Below, one piece after another: positions 2 through 8,629 of a DNA stretch of 64,000 nucleotides (position 1 is its first letter; the number at the start of each line of letters is the position of its first letter). This stretch comes from Caballeronia telluris (GTDB taxonomy: Bacteria > Pseudomonadota > Gammaproteobacteria > Burkholderiales > Burkholderiaceae), in assembly GCF_001544495.1 (NCBI RefSeq), contig NZ_FCNZ02000004.1, positions 124,001 to 188,000 of the forward strand. Reading direction: 5' to 3'. The translations under genes and the position numbers were made by a program. Below the pieces are notes generated by a model that searched no databases, was not told where the DNA came from, and saw nothing but the letters and a program-made list of their open reading frames with translations.

Positions 2-355
2 TTCGGCATGCATCAGGAAACCGACTGGAAAGCAGGCTCGCCGTGGCGGCTGATGTTCCCGGACGGACGCGTCGCCGATTCCGGCGAAGTGGTCGAGAGC
101 GATCCGCCCCGGCGCCTCGTGCTCAAATGGCGCAACGAGTTCAGGGAAGAACTGAAAGAGGAAGGCTATTCGCATTGCCGCTTCGAGATCGAACCGGTCG
201 AGCGCGCCACCAAGCTGACCGTCACGCATTCGATCGCCCGGAAGGAGTCGAAGTTCATCGGCGCGGTGTCGGGCGGATGGCCGCGTATCCTGTCCAACCT
301 CAAGTCCCTGCTCGAAACGGGCGAACTCGTTTTTTCCCCCACCCCATCCACCTGA
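2..355 (+). CDS. SRPBCC (AHSA1-like) domain protein, 5' end outside window
   Basis: This is the C-terminal part of a START/Bet v1-like (SRPBCC, AHSA1-type) ligand-binding protein. The reading frame is open from base 2, so the true start lies upstream. The visible part has the family's alternating strands (PWRLMFPDGRVADSGEV, then PPRRLVLKW) and ends in a helix with the typical GGWPRILSNLKSLLETG pattern. Such proteins bind small hydrophobic ligands or act as small cyclases or hydrolases; no catalytic residue can be assigned. It lies 15 bp before a deaminase-like gene on the same strand, so the two may be cotranscribed. The family call is firm and the function unknown. Confidence 0.75.
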   Translation, partial: FGMHQETDWKAGSPWRLMFPDGRVADSGEVVESDPPRRLVLKWRNEFREELKEEGYSHCRFEIEPVERATKLTVTHSIARKESKFIGAVSGGWPRILSNLKSLLETGELVFSPTPST

Positions 356-370
356 CCGGGAGGAAACCGC

Positions 371-904
371 ATGAGCATCGACGTGCGTGTCAATCAAGCA
401 ACCCGCTATCCGTCGCAAGGCCTTCCGCCAACGCGCGACCAGATCGTGCGGCATCTGCGGCATGCAAGCGCCGTCGCCGAGCGCGCAACGCTGATGGGTC
501 ATCATCCGTTCGGCGCGATCCTGGTCGGCCCCGATCAGGATCGCGTGCTGATGGAGCAAGGCAACGTCGATACGGTCAATCACGCCGAGTCGGTGCTGGC
601 GCGCGTCGCGGCGCTGAACTTCACGCCCGAGTATCTGTGGGGCTGCACGCTGTACACGACGGTCGAGCCGTGCTGCATGTGCGCGGGCACGGCGTACTGG
701 GCGAATATCGGCCGCGTGGTGTTCGGCATGACCGAGGAACGGCTGCTCGAAGCCACCGGCGATCATTCCGAAAATCCGACGATGAGCGTGGCATCGCGCT
801 ACGTCTACGACCATTGCCAGAAGGCCGTGGATCTGATCGGCCCGGTGGCGGAGGTCGAAGAGGAAGTGCTGCGCGTGCAGCGCGCGTTCTGGTCGAAACG
901 CTGA
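371..904 (+). CDS. Nucleoside deaminase-like protein (cytidine/deoxycytidylate deaminase superfamily)
   Basis: This 177-residue protein has both zinc motifs of the cytidine deaminase superfamily: HAE at residues 71-73 (one zinc ligand and the proton-shuttle Glu) and PCCMC at 100-104 (two Cys ligands). The second motif leads into CAGTAYWANIGRVVFG, as in guanine/tRNA-adenosine deaminase relatives. It should hydrolytically deaminate a base, nucleoside or related amino-heterocycle in the cytoplasm; the substrate cannot be read from sequence. The start at 371 follows a GGGAGG ribosome site. It converges on the FAD oxidase gene with only 4 bp between stop codons, so a role in the neighbouring catabolic cluster is possible but unproven. 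Confidence 0.85.
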   Translation: MSIDVRVNQATRYPSQGLPPTRDQIVRHLRHASAVAERATLMGHHPFGAILVGPDQDRVLMEQGNVDTVNHAESVLARVAALNFTPEYLWGCTLYTTVEPCCMCAGTAYWANIGRVVFGMTEERLLEATGDHSENPTMSVASRYVYDHCQKAVDLIGPVAEVEEEVLRVQRAFWSKR

Positions 905-908
905 CGCG

Positions 909-2300
909 CTAGATCAGCTTGCCGGGGTTCAGGATGCCGTTCGGGTCGAGCGCGCGTTTGATCGCGGTCATCGCCGCGATCTCCTCGGGCGAACGCGAGA
1001 GCGGCAGGAACTCGCGCTTGAGCAACCCGATGCCATGCTCCGCCGAGACCGATCCGCGATACGGCACGACCCTGTCGTAGACGAACGCGTAGACCTCGTG
1101 ATGCGACACGCCCGGCACCGAATGTCCGTCCACGGTCACGTGCAGGTTCGAATCGCCGATATGGCCGAAGTAGTACGAGCGGTTCGACGGCCAGAGCGCA
1201 TCGAGCGCGGCGCGGCATTCGTCGACGAAGTGGCCGATCGAGCCGATCGGCAAGCTGACGTCGAAATTGATCGGATCGAGCCGCGCGGGAAATTCCGCCG
1301 TGCACTCGCGGATTTGCCAAAGCGCGCGTGCATCCGCCACCGATTGCGCGACGATCGCATCGCGCACCGCGCCGGCGTCGAAGGCGTCGGCGAGCGCGGC
1401 GGCGAAGCGCTCGCCGTCGTCGTCGGCATCGAAGCCCGCATGTTCGATCAGCGCGTAAAGCGGATGCGGCGCGGCAAACGGCGAGCGCGCGGAGGATGTG
1501 AGGGAAACGCCGAAGTCGAAGAAGTCCGGCCACATGATTTCGAACGCGCCGATATCGTTGCCGAAGCGTGCCGAGAGCGTACGCAATAGCGCCACGACCT
1601 GATCGTAGCCATCGAGCGCAACGAGCGCCGTGTGACGCCCCGCGCGCGGCGGATGCAGCCGCAACACCGCGCGCGTGATGACGCCGAGCGTGCCTTCCGA
1701 GCCGACGAAAAGCTGCTTCAGGTCATAGCCCGTGTTGTTCTTGATCATCTTGTTCATGGAACTCAGCACGGCGCCGTTCGCGAGCACCGCTTCGAGGCCG
1801 AGCACCTGTTCGCGCGCGGTGCCCGACTGGATCACGCGATTGCCGCCCGCGTTGGTCGCGAGATTGCCGCCGATCTGACACGAGCCGCGCGCGCCGAGAT
1901 CCAGCCCGAGTTCGAAGCCCGCCGCCGCCGCCGCTTCCTGCGCGGTCTGCAAGGTGGTGCCGGCGAGCACGGTCATCGTGGCCGATGCCGCGTCGATTTC
2001 CTCGATTCCGGCGAGCCGTTCGAGCGAAATCGCGATGTCGGTCGGGCGCGCGATCGCGCCGCCCGCGAGCCCCGTCATGCCGCCTTGCGGCACGACGCTT
2101 TGGCGCGCTTCGTTGCAGATCGCGAGCGCGCGCGACACCTCGTCGGTCGAGCGGGGCAGCACGAGCGCCGCGGGTCGCGCGGGCGCGTGGCCGGTCCAGT
2201 CGGTCATCGAGCGTTCGCCGATAGCTTCGCCCACGCGCACGCGGTCGTCGCCCAGGGCTTCGCGCAACGCGGCGATGGTGGCGTCGAGCGGCGCGCTCAT
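909..2300 (-). CDS. FAD-binding oxidase, D-2-hydroxyacid dehydrogenase (GlcD/D-LDH) type
   Basis: The 463-residue protein belongs to the PCMH-type FAD oxidases. The N-terminal FAD-binding domain carries VVPQGGMTGLAGGA and GSCQIGGNLATNAGGNRVI. The C-terminal FAD-oxidase C domain includes YYFGHIGDSNLHVTV (HxGDSNLH) and ends SAEHGIGLLKRE...NPGKL, the classical glycolate oxidase D-subunit/D-lactate dehydrogenase finish. It should oxidise a D-2-hydroxyacid to the 2-oxoacid with FAD. The ATG at 2300 overlaps the stop of the upstream oxygenase by 4 bp, so translation is probably coupled. The minus-strand frame stays open far upstream of this start, but that is read-through over the oxygenase gene and not a fusion. 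Confidence 0.9.
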   Translation of the reverse strand: MSAPLDATIAALREALGDDRVRVGEAIGERSMTDWTGHAPARPAALVLPRSTDEVSRALAICNEARQSVVPQGGMTGLAGGAIARPTDIAISLERLAGIEEIDAASATMTVLAGTTLQTAQEAAAAAGFELGLDLGARGSCQIGGNLATNAGGNRVIQSGTAREQVLGLEAVLANGAVLSSMNKMIKNNTGYDLKQLFVGSEGTLGVITRAVLRLHPPRAGRHTALVALDGYDQVVALLRTLSARFGNDIGAFEIMWPDFFDFGVSLTSSARSPFAAPHPLYALIEHAGFDADDDGERFAAALADAFDAGAVRDAIVAQSVADARALWQIRECTAEFPARLDPINFDVSLPIGSIGHFVDECRAALDALWPSNRSYYFGHIGDSNLHVTVDGHSVPGVSHHEVYAFVYDRVVPYRGSVSAEHGIGLLKREFLPLSRSPEEIAAMTAIKRALDPNGILNPGKLI

Positions 2301-3286
2301 GCGGCCGTGCCCTGCTGCTCGGCTGCGCGCTTCTTGCGATACCCCATCGAATCGTTGATGCGCCCGAGGATGTAATCGCCTGCCGCCACCGGCGCATGAC
2401 GCACCTCGCCCGCCGGCGTGCCGAGTTCGGCCGGATCGACGATGGCGCCGTAGGTCGGATCGTAGAAGGTCGCGATCGAATAGCGCTCGCGGCCCGACGC
2501 ATTGATCACGCGATGCAGCGTCGAGCGGAACCGGTCGTTGGTCCAGCGCGCGAGCAGATCGCCGACATTGACGACGAAGCTGCCCGGAATCGGCGGCGCA
2601 TCGATCCAGGTGTCGTTCGCGATTTCGCGCACTTGCAGGCCGCCCACCTGGTCCTGCCAAAGCAGCGTGATGCAGCCGTAGTCCGTATGAGGCGCGACGC
2701 CGAACTGATCTTCGCCGGATTGCGGCGGCTGCGGCGGGTAATAGACCATCTGCGTGCGCTGCATGCGCTTCGTGTAGCGCGACGCGAAAAAATGCTCGTC
2801 GATGTCGAGACTCGACGCCACCGCGCGCAGCAGATGACCGCCGCACTCGCCGATCGCGTCGTAATAGCCGTAGAGCGCCGGCCGCAGTTCGGGCATGAAG
2901 TCGGGCCAGTTGTTCGGGCCGCGCAGCGCCTGACCCGCGAGCACGTCCGGATCGTCCTCGGGTAGTTCGAGGCCGATGCTGTAGAACTCCTTGTAATCGG
3001 GGCGCTTGGCCTGATACATGGTCGCGTCGCCGAGCGAATTGAAGCCGCGATGCCGGTGATTCACCGCCGCGCGCCGCTTCGTTTCGACGGGAAACGCGAA
3101 GAACTTGCGCGCGGCGGCTTCGGCTGCGTCGATCACATGTTGCGGCACACCATGATTGATGATGTAGAAGAAGCCGAGCGTCGTGCAGGCGTCGCGAATT
3201 TCGTGGCCGACGCGCGCGAGCGCGGCAGCGTCGCCTTCGCGCACGCCGCTGAAATCGATGAGGGGAATTCGGGTGACTGACGGCAT
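2297..3286 (-). CDS. Isopenicillin N synthase-like 2-oxoglutarate/Fe(II) oxygenase
   Basis: This 329-residue protein has the DIOX_N plus 2OG-FeII_Oxy architecture. The N-terminal domain opens with IPLIDFSG and contains GFFYIINHGV. Iron ligands are H200 and D202 (APHTDYG) and H258 (RSTLHRV). The RYS pair at residues 268-270 would hold the 2-oxoglutarate carboxylate or equivalent cosubstrate. It should catalyse an oxidative reaction (hydroxylation, ring closure or cleavage) on a small molecule. The start at 3286 gives the standard family N-terminus; the longer open frame upstream runs into the promoter region. It is first in a two-gene operon with the FAD oxidase and faces the ABC transporter operon across a shared, probably HutC-controlled, promoter region. 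The substrate is unknown. Confidence 0.88.
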   Translation of the reverse strand: MPSVTRIPLIDFSGVREGDAAALARVGHEIRDACTTLGFFYIINHGVPQHVIDAAEAAARKFFAFPVETKRRAAVNHRHRGFNSLGDATMYQAKRPDYKEFYSIGLELPEDDPDVLAGQALRGPNNWPDFMPELRPALYGYYDAIGECGGHLLRAVASSLDIDEHFFASRYTKRMQRTQMVYYPPQPPQSGEDQFGVAPHTDYGCITLLWQDQVGGLQVREIANDTWIDAPPIPGSFVVNVGDLLARWTNDRFRSTLHRVINASGRERYSIATFYDPTYGAIVDPAELGTPAGEVRHAPVAAGDYILGRINDSMGYRKKRAAEQQGTAA

Positions 3287-3374
3287 CGGCTGGCTCCTGG
3301 AGCGGCGTGGCGACGGGGATGTTCGGCTCGCCGTCGCGCACATAAACACGCGCACGGCATGGCGCATCTCCGGT

Positions 3375-3403
3375 TGTATATACCGCCAATTCCAGCACCG
3401 CAA
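3375..3403 (-). promoter_or_regulatory. Promoter of the oxygenase operon with overlapping GTATATAC operator
   Basis: On the minus strand, TTGCGG (3403-3398) and TATACA (3380-3375) are separated by exactly 17 bp. The -10 box lies within the palindrome GTATATAC at 3376-3383. That palindrome matches the GTMTAKAC consensus described for HutC-subfamily GntR regulators. A repressor bound there would block RNA polymerase. Confidence 0.6.
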
Positions 3404-3476
3404 GTTGCAATGCAGCGACCGCACCGCGCGTTTTCCGGCACGCTCATGCGCCCATGAATCCGCGCGGAATTTCTTT

Positions 3477-3505
3477 TTGGTCATCGAAATTTCGCGGTAT
3501 ATACT
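3477..3505 (+). promoter_or_regulatory. Promoter of the ABC transporter operon with overlapping GTATATAC operator
   Basis: TTGGTC (3477-3482) and TATACT (3500-3505) are separated by exactly 17 bp. The -10 overlaps a second GTATATAC palindrome at 3497-3504. Flanks are related to the other copy (GTATATACCGC on the opposite strand in each case), so the two sites are inverted copies about 121 bp apart. Transcription would start about 65 bases upstream of the first transporter ATG. Confidence 0.62.
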
Positions 3506-3576
3506 GCCTCGCATACCGCGCTGACCCGCCCTCTGCCGGACGCGCGACGAGCTTTTTTGCCACCCCGGAGACTCTG

Positions 3577-4404
3577 ATGAATATCCTTGCAGGCTGGAGA
3601 AGTCGTGTGCTGATGCTGACCCTGTGCGCCGCGAGCGTGTGCGCGCATGCCGAAGATCAGCTCGCGAAGGTGAAGAAGGCGGGCGAACTCGTGATCGGCA
3701 CGGAGATGCAGTTCGCGCCGTTCGACTTCCTCGAAAACGGCCAGCAAGCGGGTTTCAACAAGGACCTTTTCGCGGAGATCGGCAAAGAGATCGGCGTGAA
3801 GGTGCGCTTCATCGACCTGCCGTGGCCGAGCGTGCTGCCCGGTCTCGAAGCGGGCAAGTTCGACATGGTCGGCGGCCCGATCACGGTGACTAAAGCGCGC
3901 ATGGAACGCTATACGTACACGCTGCCCGTCGCCGATGCCACCGACGCCTTCCTCAAGCGCGCCAACGATTCGAACCTCAAGCAATCGTCCGATGTAGCGG
4001 GCAAGACGGTCGGCGGGGGCAAGGGCTCGGCGCAGCTCGATCAGTTGAAGGCCTACGCGGCCACGTTGCCGAAGCCGCCGGAAATCCGCGAATACGTCGA
4101 CAACAACCAGGCCTATGCGGACCTCGCGGCGGGCCGGATCGTCGCGGTGGCGAATTCGATGACCAACATCGCGTACGTCGCGAAGCAGCGGCCGGAGACG
4201 TTCGCGGTCGTCCAGCCGCCGTTCGGCGCGAAGGTGTACTTCGCGTATTGCCTGCGCAAGGACGCGGACAGCAAGCCGCTCGCCGACGCGTTCAACAATG
4301 CGCTCCTCAAGCTCGACAAGGACGGACGCCTCGCCACGTTGCAGAAGAAGTGGTTCGGCGTCGCGATGCAGGTCCCGCCGACGCTGCCGGCGCCGAACTA
4401 CTGA
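3577..4404 (+). CDS. Polar amino-acid ABC transporter, periplasmic substrate-binding protein
   Basis: The 275-residue protein is a family 3 (SBP_bac_3) solute receptor. A signal peptide ending near CAHAEDQ precedes the mature domain, which shows VIGTEMQFAPFDFLENGQ, the FNKDLFAEIGKEIGVK segment and the terminal KDGRLATLQKKWFG signature. The ATG at 3577 was chosen because CGGAG lies 6 bp upstream and the signal peptide starts there; the longer frame runs into the promoter. It heads an operon of two permeases, an ATPase, an aminotransferase and a GntR regulator. Ligands of this family are amino acids or opine-like compounds; the exact ligand is unknown. Confidence 0.9.
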   Translation: MNILAGWRSRVLMLTLCAASVCAHAEDQLAKVKKAGELVIGTEMQFAPFDFLENGQQAGFNKDLFAEIGKEIGVKVRFIDLPWPSVLPGLEAGKFDMVGGPITVTKARMERYTYTLPVADATDAFLKRANDSNLKQSSDVAGKTVGGGKGSAQLDQLKAYAATLPKPPEIREYVDNNQAYADLAAGRIVAVANSMTNIAYVAKQRPETFAVVQPPFGAKVYFAYCLRKDADSKPLADAFNNALLKLDKDGRLATLQKKWFGVAMQVPPTLPAPNY

Positions 4405-4438
4405 GCCACCGCCTCAAGCGTCCGAACACGGAGGCCCC

Positions 4439-5089
4439 ATGTTCAGCATGACCGTTTTCGTGCAAGGCATCCCGCTCTTGTTGCAGGCGGCGGTCGCGAC
4501 CATCGGCATTTCGCTCATCGGGCTCGTGATCGGTTTCTTCGTTGCGGTCGGCGTGTGCTCGGCGCGGCTCTCGCCGAGCCGGGCCTGGCGCGCGGCGGGC
4601 GGCGCGTACGTGTTCTTCTTTCGCGGCGTGCCGATGCTCGTGCAGTTGCTGCTCGTCTACTACCTGCTGCCGTTCGCCGGTATCAACGTGCCGCCGCTCG
4701 TCGCCGCAATCAGCACGGTGTCGCTGTGTTCGGCGTCGTATATCGCGGAGATTTTGCGCGGCGGCTTTCTCAGCATCCCGCCAGGCCAGATCGAAGCCGC
4801 GCGCATGCTCGGCCTGCCGCCGCTCGACACGCTGCGCCGCATCCTCGTGCCGCAGGCGTTCCGGCTGACGCTGCCGTCGCTCGTGAACGAGATGGTGCTG
4901 CTCATCAAGGCGTCGTCGCTGATTTCGGTGGTCGGTATCGCCGAAATCACGCGCACCGCGCAGAACATCGCGGCGAGCACCTACCGGCCGCTGGAGGCGT
5001 ACGTCGCGGCGGGGCTTATCTATTTCGTGATCTGCGGCGCGCTGTCGCTCGTCGCGCACGCCGCCGAAGCGCGGCTGCAACACGCCTGA
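4439..5089 (+). CDS. Polar amino-acid ABC transporter permease (first)
   Basis: This 216-residue inner-membrane protein has the HisM/HisQ/GlnP-type permease fold with about five membrane segments. The loop that contacts the ATPase reads GQIEAARMLGLPPLDTLRRILVPQAF, the EAA motif. An earlier signature is FFFRGVPMLVQLLLVYY. The start at 4439 is 34 bp after the binding-protein stop. It forms a heterodimer with the next gene product to move the substrate across the inner membrane. Confidence 0.9.
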   Translation: MFSMTVFVQGIPLLLQAAVATIGISLIGLVIGFFVAVGVCSARLSPSRAWRAAGGAYVFFFRGVPMLVQLLLVYYLLPFAGINVPPLVAAISTVSLCSASYIAEILRGGFLSIPPGQIEAARMLGLPPLDTLRRILVPQAFRLTLPSLVNEMVLLIKASSLISVVGIAEITRTAQNIAASTYRPLEAYVAAGLIYFVICGALSLVAHAAEARLQHA

Positions 5090-5099
5090 GGACGACGCC

Positions 5100-5762
5100 A
5101 TGCAGCAGTTCGACCCCGCCGTCATCACGCACAACCTGTCCGCCATCGGCGCCGGACTCGCGACGACACTCGGCACGTGGATCGCCGGCGTCGTGCTCGG
5201 CCTCGCGATCGGTTTCGTCATCGCGCTGCTGCAACTCTTTTGCGGACGCTGGGTGCGCGCCGTGCTGCGCGCCTACATCGAACTCTTTCGCGGCACGCCG
5301 TTTCTCGTGCAGCTCTTTTTGCTGTACTACGGCGGGCCGTCGTTCGGGCTGACGCTCGAACCGCTGACGGCGGGCATCCTCGGCCTCGGACTCTACGGCA
5401 GCGCGTACTTCGCCGAAGCCTTCCGCTCGGGCTTTCGCGCGGTGCCGCCGGGACATCTCGAAGCGGCGTCGTGCCTTGGCATGTCGCGCTGGCAAATCGT
5501 GCTGCGCATCCAGATTCCGCAGATGTTCGTGCTGATCGTGCCCGCGATCGTCAATCTGATCATCGTGCTCAGCAAGGAAACCGCCGTGCTGTCGATCGTG
5601 ACGGTTCCCGAACTCACGTTCGTCCTGACGGGCATCGGCTCGGCGACGTTCGCCTTCGTCGAGACGCTGCTTGCGCTGTGCGTGTGCTATCTGCTGCTCG
5701 TCGAACTCGCGTCGCGCGCGGGACTGTGGGCGGAGGCGCGGCTCACGCGCTTTCTCGTCTGA
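5100..5762 (+). CDS. Polar amino-acid ABC transporter permease (second)
   Basis: The 220-residue protein is a paralogue of the preceding permease, with the same ELFRGTPFLVQLFLLYYGGP signature and EAA loop (GHLEAASCLGMSRWQIVLRIQIPQ). The two permeases would pair as in the HisQ/HisM arrangement. It starts 10 bp after the first permease ends and is followed by the ATPase gene, so it belongs to the same transcript. Confidence 0.9.
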   Translation: MQQFDPAVITHNLSAIGAGLATTLGTWIAGVVLGLAIGFVIALLQLFCGRWVRAVLRAYIELFRGTPFLVQLFLLYYGGPSFGLTLEPLTAGILGLGLYGSAYFAEAFRSGFRAVPPGHLEAASCLGMSRWQIVLRIQIPQMFVLIVPAIVNLIIVLSKETAVLSIVTVPELTFVLTGIGSATFAFVETLLALCVCYLLLVELASRAGLWAEARLTRFLV

Positions 5763-5816
5763 TGTGTGGACCATGCGGACCATGTGGATTGCTATGCCTC
5801 GTCACCAGGTGAACCG

Positions 5817-6689
5817 ATGAATGCCATGATCGACCTTCCCGTTTCCGCGTCCGAGTCCTCCGTCATCGAGACGCCCGCGCCCTCCTCGCCGCTGATCGAA
5901 GTGCGCAATCTCGGCAAGCGCTTCGGCGAGCTCGAAGTCCTGCGCGGCGTCGATCTCGACATCGAACGGTCGGAGGTGGTCTGCATCATCGGCCCGTCGG
6001 GCTCGGGCAAGAGCACGCTTCTGCGCTGTCTCGCCGCGCTCGAAACGTACGACGCAGGCGAAGTGCGCATCGAAGGCGAACTGCTCGGCTACGGCGAGAA
6101 GAACGGCCGGCGCGTGCGCGCGTCGCAGGGCGAGATCAATCGCGTGCGGCGCAACATCGGCATGGTGTTCCAGCAGTTCAATCTGTGGCCGCACATGACG
6201 GCGCTCGAAAACGTGATGGAGGCGCTCCTGCGCGTGCGCCGCCTGCCGCGCGCGGACGCGAAGCGGCGCGCCAACGCGATGCTCGACACGGTCGGCCTCG
6301 CGCACAAGGGCGACGCCTATCCGGCGAAGCTCTCGGGCGGACAGCAGCAGCGCGTGGCGATCGCGCGCGCGCTCGCGATGGAGCCGCACATCATGCTCTT
6401 CGACGAACCGACGTCCGCGCTCGATCCCGAACTCGTCGGCGAAGTGCTGCAAGTGATGAAGCAGCTCGCGCGCGACGGCATGACGATGGCCGTCGTCACG
6501 CACGAGATGGGCTTCGCGGCGCAGGTCGCGGACAAGGTGATGTTCATCGACCAGGGACGCATCGCCGTGCAAGGCAAGCCGCGCGAAGTGTTTCATAACG
6601 CCGGAGAGCCGCGTCTGCGCCAGTTCCTGCAGAACTACTTCGACCGCAACGCGTTCTGGTCGCGCGGCGGCGAAGGAGAAACCGCATGA
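5817..6689 (+). CDS. Polar amino-acid ABC transporter ATP-binding protein
   Basis: The 290-residue ATPase has a Walker A (GPSGSGKST, residues 59-67), a Q-loop ([12 protein letters not shown]), an LSGGQQQR signature and a Walker B ([14 protein letters not shown]), with the switch His in VVTHEMGF. This is the GlnQ/HisP subfamily. A roughly 25-residue Ser/Pro-rich N-terminal extension precedes the conserved domain. The start at 5817 gives the compact form; an open frame from 5766 would add an unlikely leader. Its last codons overlap the aminotransferase start by 4 bp (ATGA), coupling the two. Confidence 0.92.
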
Positions 6690-7813
6690 GCGCGGCCGAT
6701 GCGTTCATCGCGGCGTTGCGCCCCGAAGTGCGCGATCTGCCCGCCTACAACGCCGGCGCATCGGCGGAGCGCGTGCGCGAACAGTTCGGCGTATCGCGCG
6801 TCGCCAAGCTCGCGAGCAACGAGAATCCGCGCGGTGCCAGCCCGCTCGTTCGCGAGGCGTTGCAGCGCGCCGTCGAGGAAGGTGTCGCGCTCTATCCGGA
6901 CCCGTCGTGCAGCGCATTGCGCGAGGCGATCGGCGCGACGCTCGACGTCGAGCCCGCGCGCATTCTGTTCGGCAACGGGTCGGAGGATCTGCTGTCGGTG
7001 GCGGCGCAGACGTTTCTCTCGCCCGCCGATGAAGTGGTCACCGTCACGCCTTCGTTCGGCTTGCATGTGATCTATCCGCAACTCGCGGGCGCACGCGTGC
7101 GCGCCGTGCCGATGCGCAACCTGCGCTTCGACGTCGATGCGCTGTGCGAAGCGCTCACGCCGCGCACGCGCATGCTGCTGGTGAGCAATCCGTCGAATCC
7201 CGTGGGCGCGGCGCTTTCGGGCGACGAATTCGAACGCCTGCTGTCGGCGGTCGCACCGGGCACGCTGATCGTGTGGGACGAGGCGTACTTCGAGTACGCG
7301 CGCGTCGATCCGTCTTACGCGGCAAGCCTGCCGATCCTTGAGCAATCGCACTCGCCGTGGCTCGTACTGCGCACGTTCTCGAAGGCTTATGGGCTGGCGG
7401 GTTTGCGCATCGGTTACGGCATGGCATCGGATGCGCGTCTCGCCGATCTCATGAACCGCGTGCGCACGCCGTTCAACATCAACCGTCTCGCGCAGTGCGC
7501 GGCGCTCGCCGCATGGTCGGACACGGCCTATGTCGCCGACAGCGTGCAGCACGCGATCCGCGAGCGCGAACGCATGCGCGCCGCGCTCACCGCGATGGGC
7601 TACGCCTGCGCGCCGTCGCTCGCGAACTTCCTGTTCTTCGACGCGCGCGAAGACGCGGATGCGCTCGCGCAACGCCTGATGCGTGCGGGCGTGATCGTGA
7701 AGCCGTGGCACGAACCGGGTTTCACGCGATGCGTGCGCGTCTCGACAGGCAGCCGCGAAGACAACGATCTCTTCATCGAAACGCTCGGGCGTGTGCGCTC
7801 GGCGCGGCACTGA
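6686..7813 (+). CDS. HisC-like PLP-dependent aminotransferase (fold type I)
   Basis: The 375-residue protein resembles histidinol-phosphate aminotransferases. It has [13 protein letters not shown] at the N-terminus, SNPSNPVGA, the [10 protein letters not shown] strand, the Schiff-base lysine K233 in [17 protein letters not shown], and R in [10 protein letters not shown] for the substrate carboxylate. Because it sits inside an amino-acid uptake operon and not with his genes, I infer a catabolic or salvage paralogue acting on the imported amino acid or a relative of histidine. True HisC activity cannot be excluded. It is coupled to the ATPase gene by a 4-bp overlap. Confidence 0.85.
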
Positions 7814-7825
7814 GGAGGCGGCGCG

Positions 7826-8629
7826 ATGTCGGGAACTCCGCACACGAAGCCGGCCGAGCCGGCGCACAAGGCCCTCGACACCGCCGATACCGATGCCGAC
7901 ACGGACGCCCCGCTCGCCCGCTACGCGCAGGTGAAGACCTACATCCGCGGCAAGATCGAGGCGGGGACGTGGCAGCCGGGCGATCGCATTCCTTCGGAAC
8001 TGAGTCTCGTCGAATCGCTCGGCGTGTCGCGCATGACGATCAACCGCGCGTTGCGCGAACTGACGGGCGAGGGCTGGATCACGCGGCTGTCGGGCGTCGG
8101 CACGTTCGTCGCGGAGGCGAAGCCGCAGTCCACGCTGCTGATGATCGCCCACATCGGCGACGAGATCCGCGCCCGCGGCCACGAGTACAGCTCCGAGACG
8201 CTTCTCGTGCAGCGCGAGAGCGCGCCCGCCGCCGTGGCGAACGCACTGAGCCTGCCGCCGAGTTCGTCGGTGTTTCATCTGATCTGCGTGCATCGCGAGA
8301 ATGGCGTGCCGGTGCGTCTCGAAGACCGCTACGTCAATCCGGCCGTCGCGCCCGCGTTTCTCGACCAGGATTTCACGTCCCTGCGCCCGTCCGAATATCT
8401 CTCGGCGACGGTGCCGGCGCACGAGATCGAACATGTCGTCGATGCGTGCCTGCCGACGCGCTCCGAAGCCGAACTGCTGGAGATCGCAGCCGACGAACCG
8501 TGTCTCACGCTCGTGCGCCGCACCTGGTCGGGCGATGCCGCGGTCACGTTCGTGCGCTTCGTGCATCCCGGTTCGCGCTATCGGCTCGGCTGCCGCTTCA
8601 AGCCCGACGACTCGCGTTACCAAAGCTGA
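7826..8629 (+). CDS. GntR-family transcriptional regulator, HutC subfamily
   Basis: The 267-residue protein has an N-terminal winged helix (residues about 30-100: ARYAQVKTYIRGKI, then LVESLGVSRMTINRALRELTGEGWI) and a C-terminal UTRA ligand-binding domain (residues about 115-260, with VHRENGVPVRLEDRYVNP), the HutC architecture. AGGAGG at 7813-7818, overlapping the aminotransferase stop codon, sets the start. As last gene of the transporter operon it is the natural candidate to bind the two GTATATAC palindromes at 3376-3383 and 3497-3504 and to autoregulate. The inducer is probably the transported compound or a breakdown product. Confidence 0.9.
   Translation: MSGTPHTKPAEPAHKALDTADTDADTDAPLARYAQVKTYIRGKIEAGTWQPGDRIPSELSLVESLGVSRMTINRALRELTGEGWITRLSGVGTFVAEAKPQSTLLMIAHIGDEIRARGHEYSSETLLVQRESAPAAVANALSLPPSSSVFHLICVHRENGVPVRLEDRYVNPAVAPAFLDQDFTSLRPSEYLSATVPAHEIEHVVDACLPTRSEAELLEIAADEPCLTLVRRTWSGDAAVTFVRFVHPGSRYRLGCRFKPDDSRYQS

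What the first reader, a model, noticed from the sequence alone, without database searches (positions are those of the whole stretch)
909..8629. Uncharacterised oxidation/uptake cluster: 2OG-Fe oxygenase, FAD-linked 2-hydroxyacid oxidase, amino-acid ABC transporter, HisC-like aminotransferase, HutC regulator
The genes combine an isopenicillin N synthase-type oxygenase with intact iron and RxS residues, a D-2-hydroxyacid FAD oxidase, a polar amino-acid importer and a HisC-like aminotransferase. I know no named pathway with exactly this set. A histidine-like or other amino-acid substrate is plausible, through HisC and HutC, with transamination and 2-hydroxyacid oxidation steps, but this is inference.
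Basis: inference. Interest (0 to 1): 0.7.

Follow-up and report, generated by a model that had tools for sequence, protein, structure and literature searches.

The report
Imidazole-acid branch of histidine breakdown
A conserved set of soil-bacterial genes appears to import an imidazole acid, most likely imidazole propionate, and turn it into histidine so that the ordinary histidine-degrading pathway can consume it; the gene set is real, the substrate is untested.

Summary
Window 909-8629 (a Caballeronia-type genome) holds a 2OG-Fe oxygenase and an FAD 2-hydroxyacid dehydrogenase, divergent from an ABC importer, a HisC-like aminotransferase and a HutC repressor.

The set is a real unit. In 80 of 80 named relatives oxygenase, dehydrogenase, importer and HutC stay together, with two (79) or three (1) GTATATAC sites in the shared promoter. 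GTATATACCG occurs twice in the window's own 7.06 Mb genome, both there.

It belongs to histidine utilisation (hut). Nine of the 80 add a histidine ammonia-lyase. In 6 of 6 sampled second-family genomes that have the oxygenase, the set is interleaved with hutH, hutU, hutI, hutF and hutD. An Azospirillum plasmid has oxygenase and importer within a hut cluster. In two Hyphomicrobiales plasmids a Rieske oxygenase stands near the same importer, an FAD dehydrogenase and a HisC-like aminotransferase.

The solute receptor keeps the carboxylate Arg but has Ser where the alpha-amino-binding Asp usually sits. The dehydrogenase lacks the Lys that binds a second carboxylate.

Most likely route: imidazole propionate -> imidazole lactate -> imidazole pyruvate -> histidine -> urocanate. 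The hut side branch is well supported; the substrate is inference. Nothing was assayed.

The parts
909..2300 (-). FAD-linked D-2-hydroxyacid dehydrogenase (D2HGDH/GlcD type)
   Evidence: PF01565 + PF02913; nearest solved chains 3pm9 and human D2HGDH 6lpn; Arg, Zn ligands and catalytic His conserved, C5-carboxylate Lys replaced by Asn
2297..3286 (-). 2OG-Fe(II) oxygenase, IPNS/EFE-like
   Evidence: PF14226 + PF03171; HxD...H and RxS the same in 80 of 80 and 7 of 7 relatives
3376..3383 (.). operator-like palindrome GTATATAC (TGTATATACCG)
3497..3504 (.). operator-like palindrome GTATATAC (AGTATATACCG on the - strand)
3577..4404 (+). periplasmic solute receptor (SBP_bac_3) with Pro101, Arg108, Ser194 signature
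   Evidence: PF00497; signature 81 of 81 and 6 of 6
4439..5089 (+). ABC importer permease 1
   Evidence: PF00528, TIGR01726 over cut-off
5100..5762 (+). ABC importer permease 2
   Evidence: PF00528, TIGR01726 over cut-off
5817..6689 (+). ABC importer ATPase
   Evidence: PF00005; 80 of 80 relatives
6686..7813 (+). HisC-like PLP aminotransferase
   Evidence: TIGR01141 over cut-off; 11 of 80 named loci, 6 of 6 second-family genomes
7826..8629 (+). HutC-family GntR/UTRA repressor, second HutC paralogue of this genome
   Evidence: TIGR02018 299.7 bits, cut-off 220; 43% identical to the HutC of the genome's main hut operon

Best explanation
The cluster is a HutC-controlled side branch of histidine utilisation. 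The ABC importer takes up an imidazole acid without an alpha-amino group, most likely imidazole propionate. The 2OG-Fe oxygenase hydroxylates its alpha carbon to imidazole lactate, the FAD enzyme oxidises this to imidazole pyruvate, the HisC-like aminotransferase makes L-histidine, and HutH turns histidine into urocanate, which enters the hut pathway and relieves HutC. Shown here: gene content, conservation, operator-like sites, linkage to hut genes, conserved residues. Inferred: the substrate, the order and stereochemistry of the steps, HutC binding and its inducer. Confidence by layer: hut side branch 0.85; 2-hydroxyacid to histidine as the chemistry 0.58; imidazole propionate as the oxygenase substrate 0.4 (the last two lowered slightly after one search showed the Rieske enzymes to be of the VanA demethylase type).
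For: (1) Unit: 80 of 80 named loci keep oxygenase, FAD enzyme, receptor, both permeases, ATPase and HutC. (2) Regulation: GTATATAC occurs twice in the receptor/oxygenase interval in 79 of 80 loci (three times in 1) and 8 times elsewhere in 1.479 Mb of these loci, all 8 in loci that carry hutH and the aminotransferase; GTATATACCG occurs twice in the own 7.06 Mb genome, both here. A HutC consensus is TGTA-N2-TACA (PMC12977541, passage). (3) Hut link: 9 of 80 loci add hutH; two cluster HutH, those of L022 and L027, were tested and pass TIGR01225. 6 of 6 second-family genomes with the oxygenase have it in one island with HutH, HutD, HutF, HutU, HutI, aminotransferase, FAD enzyme and importer, 24 of 32 GTATATAC sites there being perfect TGTATATACA. 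Azospirillum plasmid L224 has oxygenase + importer in a hut cluster. (4) Chemistry: an FMN 2-hydroxyacid dehydrogenase joins the island in 3 of 6 and lies near the one extra oxygenase copy. In Aureimonas L232 and Mesorhizobium L231 a Rieske oxygenase stands near the same importer, an FAD dehydrogenase homologue (36-37%) and a HisC-like aminotransferase (45-48%). Mesorhizobium also has a CoA transferase and an acyl-CoA dehydrogenase divergent from the importer, which would suit a saturated acid. (5) Residues: the receptor keeps Arg108 but has Ser194 at the usual Asp (81 of 81, 6 of 6, and 7 of 7 further plasmid receptors). The FAD enzyme has Asn349 for the Lys401 that binds the C5 carboxyl of D-2-hydroxyglutarate (window, 80 of 80, 6 of 6). 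(6) Imidazolepropionate is reported as a non-metabolised inducer of histidine-degrading enzymes (only the title of Schlesinger and Magasanik 1965 seen, in a reference list).
Against: No biochemistry and no structure model. The Azospirillum island lacks both FAD enzyme and aminotransferase, and a Comamonadaceae hut operon has the FAD enzyme without the oxygenase, so the steps are separable. Within the stretches held the aminotransferase is absent from 69 of 80 named loci and hutH from 71 of 80. The Rieske enzymes of L231 and L232 belong to the VanA (vanillate O-demethylase) type, which suits demethylation rather than alpha-hydroxylation. Receptor relatives occur without this or a Rieske oxygenase (L227, L233, L234) or without a hut gene among those listed (L229). 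Only 9 of 17 receptor paralogues of the own genome show Asp at that column in a rough alignment, so Ser is suggestive only. Oxygenases at 49-54% identity (L205, L223) have no hut neighbours, nor has the extra copy L216. None of the 161 promoter sites in the 80 loci is the full consensus TGTATATACA; they miss one or two ends. From memory, GapMind lists an L-histidine importer of P. phytofirmans whose gene order resembles this one; I could not check it (one search found no paper).
Confidence: 0.48

Rival explanations
1. The importer is mainly an L-histidine (or urocanate) uptake system, and oxygenase and FAD enzyme handle minor side products.
For: Linked to hutH and hut clusters; PAAT-type receptor. 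Recalled, unchecked: GapMind lists a P. phytofirmans L-histidine importer with similar gene order.
Against: Ser instead of the alpha-amino-binding Asp in the receptors of this family examined (81 of 81, 6 of 6, 7 of 7). Oxygenase and FAD enzyme are kept in 80 of 80 loci, which a side job would not explain. The receptor family also lies in an ergothioneine-type (thiourocanate) cluster in Neorhizobium.
Confidence: 0.2
2. The oxygenase is an alpha,beta-desaturase that makes urocanate from imidazole propionate directly; FAD enzyme and aminotransferase serve imidazole lactate as a parallel substrate.
For: Azospirillum has oxygenase + importer + hut without FAD enzyme and aminotransferase; Comamonadaceae L230 has the FAD enzyme in a hut operon without the oxygenase; Mesorhizobium L231 has CoA transferase + acyl-CoA dehydrogenase by the same importer.
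Against: Oxygenase and FAD enzyme occur together in 80 of 80 and 6 of 6 loci; in two loci with a Rieske oxygenase an FAD enzyme and a HisC-like aminotransferase are again beside it.
Confidence: 0.15
3. The oxygenase demethylates an N-methylated histidine derivative or methyl-imidazole acid.
For: The Rieske enzymes of L231 and L232 are of the VanA demethylase type. Betaine-type modules lie next door: BCCT + MIO-less lyase in L204, L218 and L220; thiourocanate hydratase, ErtD and ErtE beside the receptor in Neorhizobium.
Against: Gives no direct role to the 2-hydroxyacid dehydrogenases. I did not search the neighbours for formaldehyde-handling genes.
Confidence: 0.13
4. Arginine/homoarginine hydroxylation as in ethylene-forming enzyme, or guanidine metabolism.
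For: The nearest solved chain is an ethylene/succinate-forming enzyme (9ovh, E 2.9e-65).
Against: The Arg of 9ovh in the stretch FRIFHYP aligns with Met in the query (the role of that Arg was not checked). The genes sit with hut genes in relatives, and no Rfam family reached its gathering score in the window.
Confidence: 0.03

Closest known systems
Histidine utilisation (hut) pathway
   Same: HutC-family regulator, HutC-like operators, and in relatives HutH and often hutU/I/F/D in the same regulon or island
   Different: Adds importer, 2OG oxygenase, FAD 2-hydroxyacid dehydrogenase and HisC-like aminotransferase upstream of histidine
Glutarate hydroxylase CsiD/GlaH with L-2-hydroxyglutarate oxidase LhgO (recalled)
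   Same: Logic: 2OG-Fe hydroxylation of an acid's alpha carbon, then flavin oxidation of the 2-hydroxyacid
   Different: Different enzyme families, D-type FAD enzyme, histidine regulon; substrate side chain not a carboxylate by residue evidence
Degradation of imidazolyl-lactate and imidazolylpropionate by Pseudomonas (Comamonas) testosteroni (Coote and Hassall 1973, recalled)
   Same: Same compounds funnelled into histidine breakdown
   Different: As I recall it named no genes; whether the route is the same is unknown
Human D-2-hydroxyglutarate dehydrogenase (6lpn)
   Same: Arg for C1 carboxyl, Zn ligands and catalytic His conserved
   Different: Lys401 for the C5 carboxyl is Asn
Ergothioneine utilisation (Ert) cluster
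   Same: In Neorhizobium the same receptor/importer family and a HutC-like regulator
   Different: No Ert model is among the NCBIfam matches shown for the ten window proteins examined (lists capped at 25 for two of them); the Neorhizobium cluster lacks this oxygenase among its listed genes

Membership tests
HutC repressor (TIGR02018) | Score over curated cut-off | tested here: met
   299.7 bits, cut-off 220; PRK14999 not met (254.3 of 424)
HutC repressor (TIGR02018) | Operator TGTA-N2-TACA at target promoters | tested here: inconclusive
   Core GTATATAC twice in the promoter; window sites TGTATATACC and AGTATATACC are one or two ends off consensus; none of 161 sites in the 80 loci is perfect; 24 of 32 sites in second-family islands are perfect
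HutC repressor (TIGR02018) | Binds urocanate / operator DNA | not testable with these tools
   needs EMSA and ligand assay
Hut pathway (window locus) | hutH/hutU/hutI in the same locus | tested here: not met
   None in the window locus; hutH and urocanase lie on contig C11, with hutC, hutD and hutF beside hutH by my reading of the translations; hutI of this genome was not sought
Hut pathway (relatives) | Set linked to hut genes elsewhere | tested here: met
   hutH in 9 of 80; hut islands in 6 of 6 second-family genomes; models passed for G404
2OG-Fe(II) oxygenase | HxD...H and RxS | tested here: met
   window, 80 of 80 and 7 of 7
Ethylene-forming enzyme | Ethylene or arginine hydroxylation activity | not testable with these tools
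   one aligned Arg of 9ovh absent, role unchecked
D-2-hydroxyglutarate dehydrogenase | Lys401 binding the C5 carboxyl | tested here: not met
   Asn in the window, 80 of 80 and 6 of 6
VAO-type D-2-hydroxyacid dehydrogenase | Arg386, His434, His441, Glu475, His476 equivalents | tested here: met
   80 of 80 and 6 of 6
HisC (TIGR01141) | Score over curated cut-off | tested here: met
   292.4 bits, cut-off 276.55; the higher-scoring model PRK05166 not met (501.7 of 540)
Alpha-amino-acid receptor (PAAT) | Acidic residue contacting the alpha-amino group | tested here: not met
   Ser194 in 81 of 81 and 6 of 6; by alignment, the role of the Asp is recalled

The most novel reading that the evidence does not exclude
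A complete aerobic pathway that degrades imidazole propionate through D-imidazole lactate and imidazole pyruvate to histidine, under a dedicated HutC, found in two proteobacterial families with all its enzymes, with oxygenase and importer alone in an Azospirillum hut cluster, and rebuilt around a Rieske oxygenase in two Hyphomicrobiales. It would give genes to a degradation that I know only at the level of growth and enzymes.
Probability: 0.38. Interest if true: 0.85.

Novelty: new variant of a known kind. Interest (0 to 1): 0.68.

Why it matters
Imidazole propionate is a microbial histidine product reported to impair glucose metabolism (abstract start of PMC7676231 seen in the listing). My searches showed no paper naming genes that degrade it or imidazole lactate (listings only, open-licence library only). 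If the reading is right, this cluster supplies the genes, a sensor and candidate enzymes for measuring or removing the compound, and widens the histidine pathway by a new entry route.

Tried and rejected
Deaminase and AHSA1 neighbours as part of the set: rejected, found in 1 of 80 relatives. Guanidine/arginine chemistry: disfavoured on context and on one aligned residue (abstract read for comparison). D-2-hydroxyglutarate as substrate: disfavoured, Lys401 is Asn. P. aeruginosa PA4191 as a guide to function: 5 papers in the listing, none opened. The literature listings on imidazole propionate gave production and disease, no degradation genes. Distant oxygenases (L205, L223, L226) and the extra copy L216 gave no hut context. 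S. meliloti FAD homologue L228: no hut or oxygenase gene among those listed. NCBIfam gave no family for the two Rieske proteins; Pfam did. Structure prediction never ran, so pocket claims rest on sequence alignments. In one search the ATPase query cut from L204 was out of frame; the check was repeated with the window's own proteins. The nine unnamed genus genomes overlap the 80 named loci (L065 and L021, for example, have contigs of the same length), so the two counts are not independent; the 80 were gathered by oxygenase similarity (best 80 of 98), belong to closely related genera, and gene presence depends on identity limits set in that script (45 to 60%).
Full report
What is there. Window 909-8629 holds two divergent units. 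Leftward: a 2OG-Fe(II) oxygenase (2297-3286) followed by an FAD-linked 2-hydroxyacid dehydrogenase (909-2300), overlapping by four bases. Rightward: a solute receptor (3577-4404), two permeases, an ATPase, a HisC-like aminotransferase and a HutC-family repressor (7826-8629). Between them lie two exact GTATATAC palindromes at 3376 and 3497; there are no others in the 64 kb window, with 0.05 expected. The nearest named relatives are Caballeronia arationis and a record named Burkholderia turbans (96% for the oxygenase).

It is a conserved unit. In the own genus 9 of 25 genomes searched, the own included, have an orthologue of the oxygenase at 74% identity or more (13 of all 41 genomes pass E 1e-40, the other four with remote homologues only). 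A scan of named genomes gave 98 relatives, of which the best 80 were kept (Caballeronia, Paraburkholderia, Trinickia, Pararobbsia, Burkholderia sp. and one unnamed Burkholderiales record). In 80 of 80 the oxygenase, FAD enzyme, receptor, two permeases, ATPase and HutC lie together in one arrangement; the aminotransferase is there in 11, a histidine ammonia-lyase (HutH) in 9, the deaminase and AHSA1 genes in 1. These 80 are close relatives, so shared descent contributes. In sampled genomes the oxygenase family is patchy: 19 of 150 of the family at E 1e-120, 3 of 369 of the class and 4 of 398 of the phylum at E 1e-90, the own genome included each time.

Regulation. GTATATAC occurs exactly twice between receptor and oxygenase in 79 of 80 loci and three times in one; elsewhere in the 1.479 Mb of these loci it occurs 8 times, all in loci that also carry HutH and the aminotransferase. 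In 6 of the 9 loci with HutH a site lies 58 to 103 bases upstream of the hutH match. In the own genome GTATATACCG occurs twice in 7.06 Mb, both in this promoter. A HutC operator is described as TGTA-N2-TACA (PMC12977541, passage); none of the 161 promoter sites of the 80 loci is the full TGTATATACA. The cluster HutC is a second paralogue, 43% identical to the HutC of the main hut operon; the three genomes of the twelve searched that lack the cluster (G001, G004, G010) have one match each, at 44-45%.

Link to histidine. The two cluster HutH tested (L022, L027) pass the hutH model (680.5 and 694.6 bits, cut-off 539.15). In G024, G023 and G008 another copy at 87-88% lies elsewhere, in G019 and G002 pieces at 83-85% on other contigs, while in G012 and G018 the other match is a 38% homologue. 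The own genome has no cluster HutH; its 86% HutH is on contig C11. In a second family (G404 and relatives) 6 of 151 genomes have the oxygenase, in 7 copies. In 6 of 6 genomes one copy lies in an island with HutH, HutD, HutF, HutU, HutI, the FAD enzyme, the aminotransferase and the importer (models for HutU, HutI, HutF, HutH and both HutC passed for G404). Of 32 GTATATAC sites there 24 are perfect TGTATATACA. The seventh copy (L216) is not in a hut context but lies one gene away from an FMN 2-hydroxyacid dehydrogenase; such an enzyme also sits in 3 of the 6 islands. An Azospirillum thermophilum plasmid carries a 57% oxygenase, the importer and hutC, hutI, hutH, hutU, hutG and a formimidoylglutamate deiminase, but neither FAD enzyme nor aminotransferase.

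Swapped enzymes. The receptor matches 433 plasmid records, reaching rhizobia at 55-60% identity. I looked at eight of these loci. L225 (Caballeronia SBC1) has the standard set with HutH and aminotransferase; L224 is the Azospirillum island. Mesorhizobium L231 and Aureimonas L232 have a Rieske oxygenase of the VanA type with a reductase, an FAD 2-hydroxyacid dehydrogenase homologue (36-37%), a HisC-like aminotransferase (45-48%) and a hutC; Aureimonas also has hutH, and Mesorhizobium a CoA transferase and an acyl-CoA dehydrogenase. Neorhizobium L233 places the importer in an ergothioneine-type cluster: thiourocanate hydratase, ErtD and ErtE models are passed. R. leguminosarum L227 and R. ruizarguesonis L234 have a HutC-like regulator, a flavin-dependent oxidoreductase and an aminotransferase; Caballeronia M1242 L229 lists no hut gene. 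Apart from these, a Comamonadaceae plasmid has the FAD enzyme (56%) at the end of a hut operon. Plasmid gene tables are incomplete by the tool's own statement.

Residues. The receptor keeps the Arg expected to hold a carboxylate (R108) but has Ser194 where the solved relatives shown have an acidic residue at or next to that place; Ser in 81 of 81, 6 of 6 and 7 of 7 further plasmid receptors. Of 17 receptor paralogues in the own genome 9 show Asp, 8 something else and none Ser in a rough alignment. The role of that Asp is recalled knowledge. The FAD enzyme keeps the Arg, zinc ligands and His of human D-2-hydroxyglutarate dehydrogenase but has Asn for Lys401, which binds the C5 carboxyl (PMC7801405, passage); the Rieske-linked homologues have Ser there. 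So the substrate side chain is probably not a carboxylate.

Reading. Hydroxylase, 2-hydroxyacid dehydrogenase, aminotransferase and histidine ammonia-lyase form a chain from R-CH2-COOH to R-CH(OH)-COOH, R-CO-COOH, R-CH(NH2)-COOH and urocanate. With histidine as the amino acid, the starting acid is imidazole propionate, which is also reported as an inducer of histidine-degrading enzymes (title of a 1965 paper in a reference list). Hut side branch 0.85; 2-hydroxyacid chemistry 0.58; imidazole propionate 0.4. The main weaknesses are the Azospirillum island without the later enzymes, the optional aminotransferase and hutH in Burkholderiaceae, the VanA type of the Rieske enzymes, and the lack of any assay or structure model.

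Novelty. The separate families are known. The combination as an entry branch to hut, with its own HutC, is in no paper that my searches listed (an open-licence library only). Papers seen: PMC12977541, PMC12772324 and PMC7801405 as passages; PMC12508155 as abstract and outline; all others as listings. Coote and Hassall 1973, CsiD/LhgO, ergothionase and GapMind are recalled and were not seen.

Noticed in passing
L104:2121-3770 and neighbours: In Paraburkholderia a HAL-like lyase (47 of 80 loci) and a second HutC-like regulator (55 of 80), with ABC genes (33-38 of 80), lie next to the cluster HutC. In L104, the one read in full, the lyase has YLS where HutH has the MIO-forming ASG, as recalled for ergothionase; a hercynine or ergothioneine lyase is possible. 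Its regulator passes TIGR02018.
   Followed up: partly
L204:14809-17947: In G404 a BCCT betaine transporter and a MIO-less HAL-like lyase (GSVGYLTHMAH) sit between hutU and hutI, and both are also in L218 and L220: a candidate histidine-betaine module.
   Followed up: partly
L233:2052-14108: Neorhizobium plasmid with thiourocanate hydratase, ErtD and ErtE next to the same importer family and an FMN monooxygenase.
   Followed up: partly
L138: A second copy of the whole set in Caballeronia sordidicola PAMC 26633 with six GTATATAC sites, aminotransferase, HutH and a GntR-type gene downstream.
   Followed up: partly
G000 contig C11, 62591 and 168017: The hut operon and its surroundings occur twice in inverted order on one contig of the window's genome with identical scores, probably an assembly duplication.
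   Followed up: no
G012:C23, G018:C1, G024:C19 and others: HutH homologues of only 38-39% identity lie close to the urocanase in several Caballeronia genomes, so the main hut operon there may use a different HutH type.
   Followed up: no
L231:8505-8979: The Mesorhizobium divergent promoter has two copies of a different palindrome, ATATGTATAG-(A/T)-CATAT, a possible operator of its HutC-like regulator.
   Followed up: no
plasmid records: 273 Klebsiella plasmid records hold a receptor homologue; those listed show about 40% identity. Their surroundings were not looked at.
   Followed up: no
window 8-904: AHSA1 protein and a CMP/dCMP-type deaminase lie beside the FAD gene on the other strand; found in 1 of 80 relatives, function not pursued.
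   Followed up: no
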